64,000 bases of DNA from positions 1,116,001 to 1,180,000 of the forward strand of contig NZ_FLKP01000002.1 of assembly GCF_900087015.1 (NCBI RefSeq), given 5' to 3'. This DNA is from Christensenella timonensis (GTDB taxonomy: Bacteria; Bacillota; Clostridia; Christensenellales; Christensenellaceae). Below, piece after piece: positions 54,974-60,719 of the stretch (the stretch's first letter is position 1; each line of letters opens with the position of its first letter). Both the position numbers and the translations under genes were made by a program. The notes beneath the pieces are model-generated. The model did no database searches. It was not told the origin of the DNA and saw nothing but the letters and a program-made list of their open reading frames with translations.

Positions 54974-55156
54974 CGAATCGTGCCTGTACCGGCGGCTTTG
55001 GAGAAGTTGGGGATGGAAGAGGTTTTCCGTCCGCTGTTATGATATAATCAGAGAAACGGGAAAAGAGGGCGGAACAATAGATTTTTTTTATTTCCTGAAT
55101 GGATTTCCAAACTTCAATCGTATTAGTAGTGAAAATAAGTTTGGGAGGCAACAAAG

Positions 55157-55705
55157 ATGAAAAAAAGATGGATCGTATTGATTGTGGCGGCAGCGGTGAC
55201 TACAGCCGTTATGGCAGCGGGAACGGCAATGGCGGCAGGGCCGCTGCATGCAGGACACAGGCAGCCGGTGGAGCAGCAGGGCATTTCCCAAAGCGTAACG
55301 CAGGAGCCGCTAAAAGCGTCGGATGCAACCTCCGTCCCCAGCCCGGCACCGCAGCCGACGCCAGAGGCTACACCGCAGCCAACGCAGGATATTCCTGTAC
55401 AAGCCTACGAAGGGTGTCCGCAGCACGGAGCGGATTGTCCCGACGATTGTATGTGGTATGACGGCGGAGCCGGATGCGGTTTTTATGACGAAAGCACGGG
55501 AACGTGTACAGAACATGACGGATATTGCCGTACCGGGGGCGAACACAGCGCGGGGGCAGCAGGAAGCGGACATCACATCGAGGACGGAGAGCACCATGAA
55601 AGTGAAAGCCATGCTGTTGAAGAACACCATGACGAAAGTGAGCAGCATGATAATGGCGGACACCACGATGAAGGCGAGCGGCATCACGGTGGAAGGCATC
55701 ACTAA
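55157..55705 (+). CDS. Secreted His-rich protein with Cys-rich core
   Basis: A 182-residue exported protein: signal peptide (about 1-27), a Pro/Thr/Gln linker (about 45-78), a Cys-rich block with eight Cys (CPQHGADCPDDCMWY ... CGFYDESTGTCTEHDGYC, about 87-125) and a tail of about 55 residues dominated by His, Glu, Asp and Gly. The composition suggests binding of Zn, Ni or Cu outside the cell. I do not recognise a named family. GGGAGG precedes the ATG. A TATAAT at 55043-55048 may belong to its promoter, but no good -35 is seen. The sigma/anti-sigma pair follows 18 bp behind. Confidence 0.75.
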   Translation: MKKRWIVLIVAAAVTTAVMAAGTAMAAGPLHAGHRQPVEQQGISQSVTQEPLKASDATSVPSPAPQPTPEATPQPTQDIPVQAYEGCPQHGADCPDDCMWYDGGAGCGFYDESTGTCTEHDGYCRTGGEHSAGAAGSGHHIEDGEHHESESHAVEEHHDESEQHDNGGHHDEGERHHGGRHH

Positions 55706-55723
55706 ACCAGACTGGGGCGGGGA

Positions 55724-56206
55724 ATGAAAAGCGAGGATGAAATACGGAATACGGTGGAAACCTATTCGGATATGGTGCGCAGGGTCTGCTTTGTGTATTT
55801 GAAAAACTATGAGGATTGTGAGGATATCTTCCAGGACGTCTTTATCAAATATGCGACTTGCAGCAAACGGTTCGATGACAGCGGGCATTTGAAAGCGTGG
55901 ATCCTGCGCGTGAGTATCAACCGGTGCAAAGACTGGTTAAAGCGTTCTGCGAGGCACGACAAGCCCTTAGAAGAGGTCAGCGGGCTCGCGCTGGCAGAAG
56001 AGGACGACAGGCGGGAGGTGCTCGAAGCGGTCACCTGCCTGCCGGAGGAATACAGGACAGTTACATACCTGCACTATTACGAAGGATACACAGCCCCCGA
56101 AATTGGAAAGCTGATACACAAAAATACGAATACGGTATATACATGGCTTGGACGTGCGCGGGATATGTTGAAAGAGAAGCTGGAGGATGAAGCGGATGCG
56201 CGATAA
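55724..56206 (+). CDS. ECF-type RNA polymerase sigma factor
   Basis: A 160-residue sigma-70-family factor of the extracytoplasmic-function type. Region 2 is YSDMVRRVCFVYLKNYEDCEDIFQDVFIKY; region 4 is LPEEYRTVTYLHYYEGYTAPEIGKLI, followed by NTVYTWLGRARDMLKEKL. It overlaps the anti-sigma gene by 20 bp. The first gene of the set, the His-rich protein, is the obvious candidate target. Confidence 0.92.
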   Translation: MKSEDEIRNTVETYSDMVRRVCFVYLKNYEDCEDIFQDVFIKYATCSKRFDDSGHLKAWILRVSINRCKDWLKRSARHDKPLEEVSGLALAEEDDRREVLEAVTCLPEEYRTVTYLHYYEGYTAPEIGKLIHKNTNTVYTWLGRARDMLKEKLEDEADAR

Positions 56207-56954
56207 GGATATAAGAGACGCGTTTGAAGCGGTTACGGCTTCGGACGAATTGAAGCAAAAAGCGGTATCGGCCGCGCTGGGGGCGACGAGACCGGCGAAA
56301 CGGAAACCCCGCCTGATCCTCGCGATGGCAGCGGTCGCAGCAGTGTTTGTCCTTGCGATCAGCGGTTATGGCATGTATATGCAGCCGTCGGCTTATATCA
56401 GTGTGGATCTGAATCCCAGTATAGAGCTCACCCTGAACAAAGCAAACAATGTCGTTGGGGTATGGGCGCACAACCGCGACGGTGAAAATATCCTTGAGAA
56501 CCTCGATCTGAAGGGGCGTTACTATGAGGACGCCATCGATGCGATATTGGAACAGGAAGGCAAGGCAGGATATTTGGGGGAGAACGCTTATGTCGTGTTT
56601 GCCGTACAAAGCAACGACCCTGTGCAGGAGCAGGAACTGCTGAAGGGGACGCAGGAGTGCGCCCAGATACACCATGGCAGCGCCCAGACGGAATGTATAT
56701 CGGTCAGTGAGGAAACAAGGGAACAGGCGCACGAACACGGGATGTCGCCCGGCAAATACCAGACTTACCTGGAATTGCAGGAGCTTGACCCTACGGTGAC
56801 GATCGAGGAAAGCCGGCATATGAGCATGCACGATATGAAAAATAAAATAGACGCATGTTCGGAGGCGCATGCGTCGGGAGGACATGAGTCCGGGAGCCAT
56901 GAGACGGAAAACCATGATGCGGGGGACGGCGGCCAGCATCACGGCAGTGAATGA
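56187..56954 (+). CDS. RsgI-like anti-sigma factor with His-rich extracellular tail
   Basis: A 255-residue single-pass membrane protein. The cytoplasmic part (about 1-42) would bind the sigma factor; the helix is at about 43-66; outside lies the conserved RsgI-type segment (YISVDLNPSIELTLNKANNVVGV). The C-terminus (about 225-255) is again rich in His and Glu (HESGSHETENHDAG). Other RsgI proteins carry carbohydrate-binding domains there; here a metal-binding tail is likely. Start is ATG 56187 or 56196. A terminator follows. Confidence 0.85.
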   Translation: MKRMRDKDIRDAFEAVTASDELKQKAVSAALGATRPAKRKPRLILAMAAVAAVFVLAISGYGMYMQPSAYISVDLNPSIELTLNKANNVVGVWAHNRDGENILENLDLKGRYYEDAIDAILEQEGKAGYLGENAYVVFAVQSNDPVQEQELLKGTQECAQIHHGSAQTECISVSEETREQAHEHGMSPGKYQTYLELQELDPTVTIEESRHMSMHDMKNKIDACSEAHASGGHESGSHETENHDAGDGGQHHGSE

Positions 56955-56966
56955 ACAAACTTTACG

Positions 56967-57013
56967 AAGCCCCGAACCTTTTATAGTTTGGTTAAAGGTT
57001 CGGGGCTTTTTAT
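56967..57013 (+). terminator. Terminator after the anti-sigma gene
   Basis: A 15-bp stem (AAGCCCCGAACCTTT / AAAGGTTCGGGGCTT) with a 12-nt loop and TTTT. It also faces the convergent lgt gene. Confidence 0.88.
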
Positions 57014-58345: not shown

Positions 58346-60719
58346 ATGAAGAAAAACAGAAAGAATTTCTATCAATTATTTACCACATTACTTGTGATTT
58401 GTATGACGATTTTGGCCATATCACCGGCCACAGCTTTGGCGGAAGAAAGCGAAACAGGCAGCTTATGCACACATATACACGATGAAGCATGCGGATACGC
58501 AGCGGCCTCGGACGGGATCGCGTGTGATATGGGATGTATGGAAACGGAGGAGGGACAAATCGTCCATGAACCGGATTGCGCATATCGGGAGGCGGCGGAA
58601 GAAGCTGCATGCAGCCATGTACACGACGATACCTGCGGTTTTATGGGAACAACACAGCCGAATGCGGAGGCGGACAGTTTTGCATTAATCACGCCGCTTG
58701 ATGGCGGATTACAGACGATGCTTGATATCAGCAAGGGAGAGATTACCGTTTCAGATACTTCTGTTTCGGGATTTGAGAGTGACGGAACACCGGCCAGCAC
58801 AGCAAACACCGACGGCTATATCATCATGCAGTCCGACCCTTCCCCGACGGCGAATAAGATCACAGTAACGGGGGGAACGGTCGACCTGACGCTGCAGGAT
58901 GTAAATATCACTTCCACAGGCGCACCGGTCACGGTCAATGCAGGAGCGGCCCTGAGGCTTACCGTCAGGGGGGATAATACGCTTGCAGGCGCGGGCGCTT
59001 ACGCCGGGATTGCAGTGGAAAAAAGTGCACAGCTCACGGTTTCGGGTGCTGGAAACCTTACCGCAACAGGCGGAAACGCCTCCTCGGGCAAAGGCGGCGG
59101 TGCGGGGATTGGCGGCAATGGACAGGGCTTTGGAGGAAACCAAAGCGAAGGGGTGGATTTTGGAAGCATAACGGTATCGCCTGCTTTTACCGGTAGCATA
59201 TCGGCAACCGGCGGGGATTGCCGAAACACTTACGGTGCGGGCGCGGGCATTGGCAGCGGCGGCATGTATACCGCCGGAGGTGCGAACGACTGGACGGAGG
59301 TATACGGCAGTATTTCCATCGAAGGCGGCACCATAGAGGCCAAAGGCGGAGAGGACTGCGCCGCAGGGATCGGCAGCGGCGGTGCGGAAGGCAGTTCGTA
59401 CGTAACGTCAAAGATCGTGGTCAATATATCCGGCGGCAATGTTACGGCAACCGGTGGAGAATACGGCGCGGGCATCGACAGCGGCAATATCGTGACAGAC
59501 GGGGAAGTGAATATCAGCAGCGGGACGGTCAAAGCTTATGGCGGAGAGTACGGCGCGGGCATTGGCGGCGGCTCGAGCAGCGATATGGGGCCGATTACAA
59601 TAAGCGGCGGAAGCATAACTGCCAAAGGCGGTATCAGCAGCGATTCCATGGGAGCTGCGGGGATTGGCGGAGGCGACAATGCCGCGGTACAGTCCGTTAC
59701 GATCACGGGCGGTACGGTCAACGCTTACGGAGGCAACGGTGCAGCCGGGATCGGCGGCGGCAGCAACACCAGTTACAGCATCTTTTTTATGGGAGACACA
59801 GACGGTGAGGTTCGATATGCCGCCCCCATCGCCATATCGGGTGCAGGCACGGTGGTCAATGCATACGGCGGAACGGGCACAGGGGCGAGCGGCATTTACG
59901 GCGGCGCAGGAATCGGCAGCGGATATCCCACAGCCAATGATGCGAGAAGCGTGGCATTTGCCGTTTCCATCACCGACGGGGCTACGGTCAATACACACGG
60001 CGGTTACCGCTCACAGGCGATCGGCTATGGCGTCCGCGACTTCGGATGTCGCAGCAGGGCACTTGGATGCGTCGAGCAGTGACAAAGTCGATGTGAACTG
60101 GCTGTTCACGGCGCCGGACATGGTGCTCACACATGCGGGAACAACGCACACAGTTACCACGGTTTCCTCCGCGGTAGCGGGTAACTGGGCGACTCTCATG
60201 CCATTTGACGAACCGCTTATAGAAAAGGTCGGCGTAAGCTACCATTGGGTGGGGCCGGACAGGCCCACCGATGTAACGCCGCCTGCAGGAGAGACGGTCA
60301 ACAAAGGCACGGCGTATACAGCGGCACAGCAGGAGGCGACAGCACAGGAGTATACCTTTGAGGGCTGGTATACGGATGAAGCGTGTAAGCAAAAGTATGC
60401 AGACGGCACGGCCCTTAATGCGGACACGATGCTCTACGGGAAGTGGACGAAGGCGGGAGGCACGGCCGATCCGGGTAATCCCGCCGACATAGAAGACCCG
60501 GAGACACCGGCAGATAATACATCGGAGACGGGGAGCGCCACGGGCAATACGGATACCAACACCAGTTCGTCTACGACCACGGATACCAAAACCGCGTCGG
60601 CAGCCTCTCCGGGTACAGGCGACGATACGAGCCTTTGGATGTGGATCACAGCAGCAGGTGCCGCGGCCCTTGTGGCCGTCCGGGTTTTGGTCGCGCGGCA
60701 CAAGGCGAAGGAAGAATAA
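58346..60719 (+). pseudogene. Repeat-rich sortase-anchored surface protein interrupted by a frameshift near 60030
   Basis: Frame one (58346-60082) encodes a signal peptide, two Cys/His motifs (CTHIHDEACGY and CSHVHDDTCGF) and a long Gly-rich domain in which GGTVxAYGGxxxAGIGGG-like units recur about ten times. It ends after an unrelated 20-residue tail. The +1 frame carries on from about 60030 to 60719 with SDVAAGHLDASSSDKVDVNW, an InlB/Flg_new-type repeat (EYTFEGWYTDEACKQKYADG), a Ser/Thr-rich stalk, the sorting-like SPGTGDD, a membrane helix and a basic tail. One extra base explains the break; no homopolymer is there. It is a disrupted gene, a sequencing error or a rare frameshift. Confidence 0.75.

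What the first reader, a model, noticed from the sequence alone, without database searches (positions are those of the whole stretch)
55157..56954. A possible metal-sensing sigma circuit: His-rich secreted protein, ECF sigma factor and RsgI-like anti-sigma with a His-rich tail
RsgI-type anti-sigma factors usually sense polysaccharides through an outside domain. Here the outside end is His/Glu/Asp-rich, and the gene in front encodes a secreted Cys- and His-rich protein of similar tail composition. This suggests that the sigma factor responds to Zn, Ni, Cu or pH, and that the secreted protein is target, metal buffer or co-sensor.
Basis: partly seen in the sequence, partly recalled or inferred. 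Interest (0 to 1): 0.66.

Follow-up and report, generated by a model that had tools for sequence, protein, structure and literature searches.

The report
Secreted histidine-rich protein's private sigma circuit
Many Clostridia carry this three-gene switch, in which a sigma factor and its membrane-bound brake seem to serve mainly to make one small secreted protein, and the brake's outer tail and the secreted protein gain and lose histidine together, hinting that both meet the same metal or acid signal outside the cell.

Summary
Window 55157-56954 holds an operon of three genes: a secreted Cys/His-rich protein (P1), an ECF sigma factor, and an RsgI-type anti-sigma (P3) with a SEAL fold and an Asn-Pro autocleavage site. 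The set recurs across Clostridia: of the 80 best of 571 sigma relatives, P3 follows in 78 and P1 was parsed in 73. A strict promoter (TGAATGGATT-N8-TCAATCGTATT) precedes P1 in 84 of 91 loci. In 24 genomes no convincing second target appeared, so P1 seems to be the circuit's main product. P1 has DxDxDG-x-C loops in all 73 of these but in only 11 of 21 other loci; the window's P1 has none. Tails are not His-rich everywhere (9 of 92 have no His), but His of P1 and of the P3 tail rises and falls together (rho 0.67; contrasts r 0.55; of 14 independent pairs about 9 agree, none disagree, the rest tie). Sigma, flanking proteins and ten RsgI paralogues do not follow it. This supports a shared His-dependent extracellular ligand, metal or protons. 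Direct evidence for metal is absent. My searches found no paper describing the system.

The parts
55096..55133 (+). Promoter of the operon: TGAATGG (-35), 18 nt between TGAA and TCGTAT (-10), and a conserved TGAA 6 nt further on
   Evidence: Exact match in own genome; same motif, same spacing in 84 of 91 loci
55157..55705 (+). P1: secreted Cys/His-rich protein, 182 aa, first gene
   Evidence: signal-peptide-like start and position conserved in relatives; no Pfam family; no paralogue found in own genome
55523..55702 (+). His/Glu/Asp-rich last 60 residues of P1
   Evidence: 15 His, 15 Asp/Glu
55724..56206 (+). ECF sigma factor, 160 aa, regions 2 and 4 only
   Evidence: Pfam Sigma70_r2 4.1e-14, Sigma70_r4_2 1.5e-11; family alignment A2
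56187..56954 (+). P3: RsgI-type anti-sigma, 255 aa
   Evidence: RsgI_M 6.5e-33; AF2 model mean pLDDT 86; fold matches 8t9n, 8hep, 8hdj
56187..56312 (+). Cytoplasmic N-terminal segment of P3 (two predicted helices), presumed sigma-binding part; no RsgI_N domain
   Evidence: conserved columns A18, L22, K23; helices 6-14 and 20-32 in the model, block pLDDT 64-78; sigma binding inferred
56412..56417 (+). Codons of Asn76-Pro77, SEAL autocleavage site
   Evidence: Pro77 aligns with residue 1 of 8hep_B, 8u9o_B, 8her_B, 8hdj_B, 8heq_B; cleavage itself not tested
56853..56951 (+). Low-complexity His-containing extracellular tail of P3 (residues 223-255)
   Evidence: low pLDDT, about 60-63, for residues 231-255
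56968..57012 (+). Terminator-like hairpin followed by T run
   Evidence: read by eye; not scored

Best explanation
A self-contained, autoregulated switch for one secreted protein. P3 holds the ECF sigma factor at the membrane through its short N-terminal segment. Its extracellular SEAL domain cuts itself at Asn76-Pro77 but stays together. A change at the disordered His-bearing tail separates the two halves, a site-2 protease (M50) then cuts P3, and sigma is freed. Sigma reads one promoter, in front of P1, and so makes P1, itself and P3. P1 goes out and, with its His (and Cys/Asp) residues, binds the same extracellular ligand that the P3 tail feels, most likely a transition metal (or protons), and so acts as buffer and negative feedback. 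Shown here by sequence: operon, promoter, lack of a convincing second target, SEAL fold and cleavage site, linked His content. Inferred: sigma binding, that this sigma reads this promoter, cleavage order, direction of the signal, identity of the ligand, role of P1.
For: Gene set conserved in 80 named loci (P3 in 78, P1 parsed in 73). Promoter with one spacing (18, of 17-19 allowed) in 84 of 91 upstream regions against 13 of 273 mononucleotide shuffles. In 24 genomes 11 of 12 sites with 0-1 mismatch lie just upstream of the operon's P3, the twelfth at a contig end; 12 off-operon sites with 2 mismatches against 15 in the reversed-pattern control. SEAL fold and cleavage site. M50 proteases in the genome. 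No recurrent neighbour family, so the three genes stand alone. His covariation P1/P3 tail: rho 0.67, p 4e-13, n=92; contrasts r=0.55, p=0.0002; independent pairs 14: about 9 same, 0 opposite, 5 tied. Basic residues do not covary (rho 0.18) and acidic ones only weakly (0.25) against His 0.67. Negative controls: sigma, flanking proteins n=66, 10 RsgI paralogues with mean 0.8% His, no shared DNA stretch over 14 nt.
Against: No metal, pH or binding measurement exists. 9 of 92 tails have no His, so the ligand is not His-dependent everywhere or not the same everywhere. Asn, Gly, Thr and Gln also covary, less strongly; only 61 of 90 His contrasts agree in sign; the P3 core follows P1 weakly too (0.24). 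One of the ten RsgI paralogues (L223) also ends in a His-rich stretch. In 9 of 24 genomes the strict promoter pattern was not found at the operon within 2 mismatches. Two of 80 loci (L110, L143) have sigma and P3 but no P1; L091 has P1 and P3 but no sigma between. The only P1 model, of a relative (L157), is poor (pLDDT 59), so binding sites cannot be read from structure.
Confidence: 0.45

Rival explanations
1. Cell-wall or surface-polymer sensor. P3 works like SigI/RsgI: the tail threads into or touches the wall, and P1 is a wall or matrix protein that binds the same polymer. His content follows the chemistry of that polymer, not a free ligand.
For: P3 is an RsgI/SEAL protein. Some P1s carry surface-type domains over Pfam cut-off: LRR_5 in L151, Listeria-Bacteroides repeat (Flg_new) in L154 and L182, Big_2 in L128. 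Gly, Asn and Gln also covary.
Against: No carbohydrate-binding domain in P3. Binding to a charged polymer should tie Arg/Lys of the two proteins together; R+K rho is 0.18 and K, R contrasts are -0.01 and 0.11.
Confidence: 0.25
2. P1 itself is the ligand of P3: a secreted feedback inhibitor (or activator) that touches the P3 tail, like with like, perhaps through bridging metal, in the manner of CpxP or ZraP (recalled, not searched).
For: Same operon, P1 as the only evident target; tails similar in composition per locus, without DNA copying.
Against: P1 of most named loci has loop repeats that the tail lacks; Cys does not covary (rho -0.13); two loci lack P1.
Confidence: 0.2
3. No functional link. 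Low-complexity extracellular tails drift in composition, and both genes follow genome-wide or habitat-wide bias.
For: Tails are disordered in the model and vary fast; Asn in the tail follows GC content (rho -0.47).
Against: His does not follow GC (rho -0.09), flanking proteins (rho 0.14 and 0.11, n=66; secreted flanking proteins, n=31, not significant), or RsgI paralogues of the same genomes (n=10, small; 0.8% His against 8.8%); the link survives contrasts and independent pairs.
Confidence: 0.1

Closest known systems
SigI/RsgI (Bacillus subtilis; cellulosomal Clostridium thermocellum)
   Same: RsgI_M/SEAL ectodomain, Asn-Pro site; autoproteolysis and intramembrane proteolysis described for RsgI (titles in the reference list of PMC12203970; PMC10575876 passages)
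   Different: Partner is an ECF factor with regions 2 and 4, not SigI; no RsgI_N domain; no carbohydrate-binding domain; a secreted protein gene leads the operon
Other ECF sigma / RsgI_M pairs without P1, e.g. sigma24C-Rsi24C of C. thermocellum and loci L013, L014, L096
   Same: RsgI-like anti-sigma next to a non-SigI sigma: sigma24C-Rsi24C is listed in PMC3990059 (passages; that sigma24C is an ECF factor is recalled); L013, L014, L096 seen here (by eye)
   Different: Rsi24C carries a GH5-like module (same passages); L013, L014, L096 have longer P3s and no P1-like gene was noticed before the sigma gene
CnrYXH of Cupriavidus metallidurans
   Same: Metal-sensing ECF circuit with a three-part layout (PMC7689651 passages); CnrY inhibits through two helices (PMC7406223 passages), as P3's short segment is predicted to have
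   Different: CnrX is membrane-bound and releases sigma by conformational change; output is an efflux pump; no SEAL domain (recalled). Likeness of working only
Excalibur / thrombospondin type 3 / EF-hand calcium loops
   Same: P1 of most named relatives has DxDxDG-x-C loops; a profile of 26 relatives' P1 weakly hits OmpA-family 5wtl (E 2.6e-4) and FrpC 6sjx
   Different: Below curated cut-offs for Excalibur and EF-hand; the window's own P1 has no such loop

Membership tests
RsgI family anti-sigma factor | RsgI_M / SEAL ectodomain | tested here: met
   PF23750 114.6 bits, cut-off 25.3; the 10 fold matches with E up to 0.001 are all RsgI
RsgI family anti-sigma factor | Asn-Pro autocleavage site | tested here: met
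   Asn76-Pro77 aligns with the start of solved chains; NPS in 74 of 78 relatives, two of the other four keep Asn-Pro. Cleavage itself not testable
RsgI family anti-sigma factor | N-terminal RsgI_N domain that binds SigI | tested here: not met
   only RsgI_M found at E up to 1; as control a SigI-type RsgI (L010) matches RsgI_N PF12791 over cut-off in the same library
SigI sigma factor | region 2 plus SigI C-terminal domain, no region 4 | tested here: not met
   region 2 and region 4_2 both found; definition from PMC10575876 passages
ECF sigma factor | regions 2 and 4 only | tested here: met
   TIGR02937 3.8e-26
CnrYXH-type metal sensor | periplasmic CnrX-type membrane metal sensor | tested here: inconclusive
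   P1 matches no family over cut-off in Pfam or NCBIfam and looks secreted, not anchored; whether these libraries hold a CnrX model was not checked
CnrYXH-type metal sensor | response to metal | not testable with these tools
   needs reporter and binding assays
Excalibur / EF-hand calcium-binding repeat (P1) | profile match over cut-off | tested here: not met
   window P1 none; of 10 relatives, best Excalibur 19.7 bits against 22. L059 passes choline-binding PF19085 by 28.9 against 27 with no single stretch significant, taken as a repeat artefact

The most novel reading that the evidence does not exclude
A widespread and so far undescribed class of one-product sigma circuits in Clostridia, in which a secreted metal- or proton-binding protein and the disordered tail of its own anti-sigma factor read the same extracellular ion. 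The tail is the sensor, P1 is the buffer, and the two are kept matched by selection on histidine.
Probability: 0.4. Interest if true: 0.78.

Novelty: new variant of a known kind. Interest (0 to 1): 0.62.

Why it matters
As far as I know, the signals of most RsgI-type anti-sigma factors outside cellulosome bacteria are unknown. Here is a compact version with one evident target and one strict promoter, present in many Clostridia, so a single reporter can reveal the signal. If the histidine link reflects ion sensing, it would be a disordered-tail ion sensor matched to a secreted buffer, and a way for Gram-positive cells to control metals or acid outside the membrane. The promoter and sigma pair could also serve as an orthogonal expression tool.

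Tried and rejected
Regulon search: in the own genome TGAAN{17,19}TCGTAT gave 21 sites against 10 in the reversed control; only the operon's site has TGAAYGG with 18 spacing, but one 17-spaced site (L043) also begins TGAATGG and was not followed. L209 (G622) has a perfect promoter without P1; it lies about 120 nt from a contig end and was not joined to anything; left open. Gene conversion between the two tails: rejected, longest shared DNA 14 nt, own pairs mean 8.4 and mismatched pairs 7.8. Genome-wide His bias: not supported. P1 structure: model of relative L157 too weak to use; the window's own P1 was not modelled. Neighbouring genes: of 125 nearest neighbours of 66 loci, 116 were scanned (9 left out for length over 700 or unknown residues); the commonest Pfam family is in 3 of 116, Na/Ca exchanger in 2 (only the first 25 of 144 families are shown). 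Weaker ECF relatives L246-L261 were not resolved: my parser failed on all but one of them.

Rows dropped before the 92-locus counts, 12 of 104: no P1 parsed L110, L113, L130, L140, L143, L175, L187; no P3 L137; incomplete L005, L062, L091; duplicate L083. L130 and L140 do show loop-bearing P1 fragments and L187 a DGTG-type one. One of the 92 had under 100 nt upstream and is missing from the promoter count.

The promoter search pattern came from seven loci, which are among the 91 tested, so those seven are not independent; one of them (L006) fails the score. The 80 named loci are those nearest to one sigma sequence (L007), so their traits may not be those of the wider family: the P1 loop is in 73 of 73 of them but in 11 of 21 other loci. 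In one search twenty regions had been fetched but only 10 paralogues passed the motif filter. My early notes give the promoter gap as N12; the count is N8.

Literature: 10 searches. Combinations with RsgI, ECF, Rsi24C, Excalibur, histidine-rich, CnrX and the loop peptides listed no paper that I could recognise as describing this three-gene set; the library holds only open-licence PMC papers, and I saw listings and passages, no whole paper. The RsgI/SEAL autoproteolysis papers PMC10556640, PMC11222046 and PMC10328401 are not held; I know them from the reference list seen and from recall.

Full report
What is there. The window carries, after pyrG and before lgt on the other strand (named from sequence by recall), an operon of three genes at the stated coordinates. 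P1 is a 182-residue protein with a signal-peptide-like start, the second gene is an ECF sigma factor with regions 2 and 4, and P3 is an RsgI_M anti-sigma. P3 has a short cytoplasmic segment, one membrane helix, a folded ectodomain and a His/Glu/Asp-rich end. Its AF2 model has mean pLDDT 86, with the last 25 residues near 60, and its ten PDB matches with E up to 0.001 are all RsgI. Pro77 falls on residue 1 of five solved RsgI chains, so the Asn-Pro autocleavage site is in place. P3 has no RsgI_N domain, while a SigI-type RsgI does match it in the same library (L010). M50 proteases are encoded at two places in the genome.

How general it is. Profile searches with P3 found the close type in 11 of 396 genomes of the order, own included (E at or below 1e-60). 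In a sample of 391 genomes of the class 31 matched at 1e-35; of the loci I read, 13 (L082-L093, L095) are of this type, one of them (L091) without a sigma gene between, while L094 and L096 are other types; the rest were not read. A sigma profile gave 4 of 398 genomes of the phylum at E at or below 1e-70, own included; of the three others two show all three genes and the third has sigma and an RsgI-like gene. In these 80, P3 follows the sigma gene in 78 (one miss is a contig end, the other unresolved) and P1 was parsed in 73. Of the seven misses two are true absences (L110, L143). By a permissive pattern all 73 parsed P1s have one to ten DxDxDG-type loops and 72 have at least two Cys. These 80 are the nearest to one sigma sequence; of 21 other P1s only 11 have the loop, and those of the window, its two congeners and its family relative L004 do not. 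So the window shows a divergent member. In the same genus 3 of 6 genomes (own included) lack the operon by P3 search. A few P1s carry surface-type domains: LRR_5 (L151), Listeria-Bacteroides repeat (L154, L182), Big_2 (L128).

The promoter. Upstream of P1, 84 of 91 loci match TGAA and TCGTAT in at least 9 of 10 positions, all 84 with 18 nt between (17-19 allowed), against 13 of 273 mononucleotide shuffles. The consensus of 81 aligned sites is TGAATGGATT-N8-TCAATCGTATTA-N-AA-GTGAA. In 24 genomes with the operon, sought with a stricter pattern, 12 sites have 0-1 mismatch: 11 lie about 0.7-1.1 kb upstream of the operon's P3 on its strand, the twelfth (G622) near a contig end. Of 16 sites with two mismatches 4 lie at operons; the other 12 compare with 15 in the reversed-pattern control. 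In 9 of the 24 genomes no site within two mismatches lies at the operon; I did not find out why in each. The sigma factor thus seems dedicated to its own operon, and P1 is its product. A weaker or differently built second target cannot be excluded. No gene family recurs beside the operon: among 116 nearest neighbours the commonest Pfam family occurs in 3.

The histidine link. In 92 loci the P3 tail has a median 7.7% His, against 1.9% in the P3 core, 2.5% in sigma and 2.8% in mature P1; 60 of 92 tails have at least 5%, 32 at least 10%, 9 none. Across loci His of the tail and of mature P1 correlate with rho 0.67 (p 4e-13), the highest of 20 amino acids; GC does not explain it (rho -0.09). On a tree of sigma plus P3 core, independent contrasts give r 0.55 with p 0.0002, the floor of the test; 61 of 90 contrasts agree in sign. 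Asn (0.40), Gly (0.40), Thr (0.37) and Gln (0.32) also covary, Pro, Leu and Val more weakly; Lys, Arg, Asp, Glu and Cys do not. The P3 core follows P1 weakly (0.24) and the tail (0.36). A median split gives 39/8/7/38; of 14 pairs on supported branches about 9 go the same way, none the other and about 5 tie, sign test about 0.004 (with the traits swapped the range reaches 0.065). Leaving out the window's family gives rho 0.63 (n=88); a set thinned to 65% identity gives 0.73 (n=56). Controls: sigma His -0.07 and -0.03 by contrasts; flanking proteins 0.14 and 0.11 (n=66); ten RsgI paralogues in ten of the same genomes average 0.8% His against 8.8% and do not follow P1, though one of them (L223) also ends in a His-rich stretch; no DNA copying.

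What it means. Charge does not carry the link (R+K rho 0.18, D+E 0.25); histidine does. Histidine differs from Lys and Arg by metal coordination and by titration near neutral pH (established chemistry). The most economical reading is that P1 and the P3 tail meet the same ion. The sequence of events (tail change, separation of the SEAL halves, M50 cleavage, sigma release) follows what is known for RsgI (PMC10575876 passages; abstract start and reference titles of PMC12203970) and is not shown here. Whether the ion turns the circuit on or off is open. P1 as secreted buffer with negative feedback is inference.

Known context. ECF factors, RsgI/SEAL proteins and ECF metal sensors such as CnrYXH (PMC7689651 passages) are known. 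An RsgI-like anti-sigma with the non-SigI partner sigma24C is known from C. thermocellum (PMC3990059 passages), and other ECF/RsgI_M pairs without P1 turned up here (L013, L014, L096; by eye). The two-helix inhibitor CnrY (PMC7406223 passages) resembles the short segment predicted for P3. I found no paper that describes the three-gene set, the P1 repeats or the promoter in the searches made, in a library limited to open-licence PMC papers. I therefore rate it a new variant of a known kind.

Noticed in passing
window 58346-60082 and 59664-60719 (+): A surface repeat protein with CTHIHDEACGY-type motifs seems to continue in another frame towards an anchor-like C-terminus (PGTGD, membrane helix, basic end); possible frameshift near 60.03 kb.
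   Followed up: partly
L091 1167-2352: P1 and P3 adjacent with no sigma gene between.
   Followed up: no
L151, L154, L182, L128 (P1 genes): P1 versions fused to surface-type domains: LRR_5, Listeria-Bacteroides repeat (two loci), Big_2; L155 looks LRR-like by eye.
   Followed up: partly
L158 6354-7298, L183 3176-4147, L245 396-1094: Cation exchangers next to the operon in three loci: Na_Ca_ex twice, GDT1 once; 2 of 116 neighbours in the scanned set, so not a rule.
   Followed up: partly
L209 1501-1538: Perfect operon promoter about 120 nt from a contig end in G622, not joined to a P1 gene.
   Followed up: partly
L094 1369-2163: An RsgI behind a SigI-like gene (by eye) with a His-containing tail, unlike most RsgI paralogues measured.
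   Followed up: no
family promoter, TGAA 6 nt after TCGTAT: The start of the transcript is strongly conserved (T 95%, G 86%, A 93%, A 91% of 81 sites), unusual for ECF promoters as I recall them; cause unknown.
   Followed up: no
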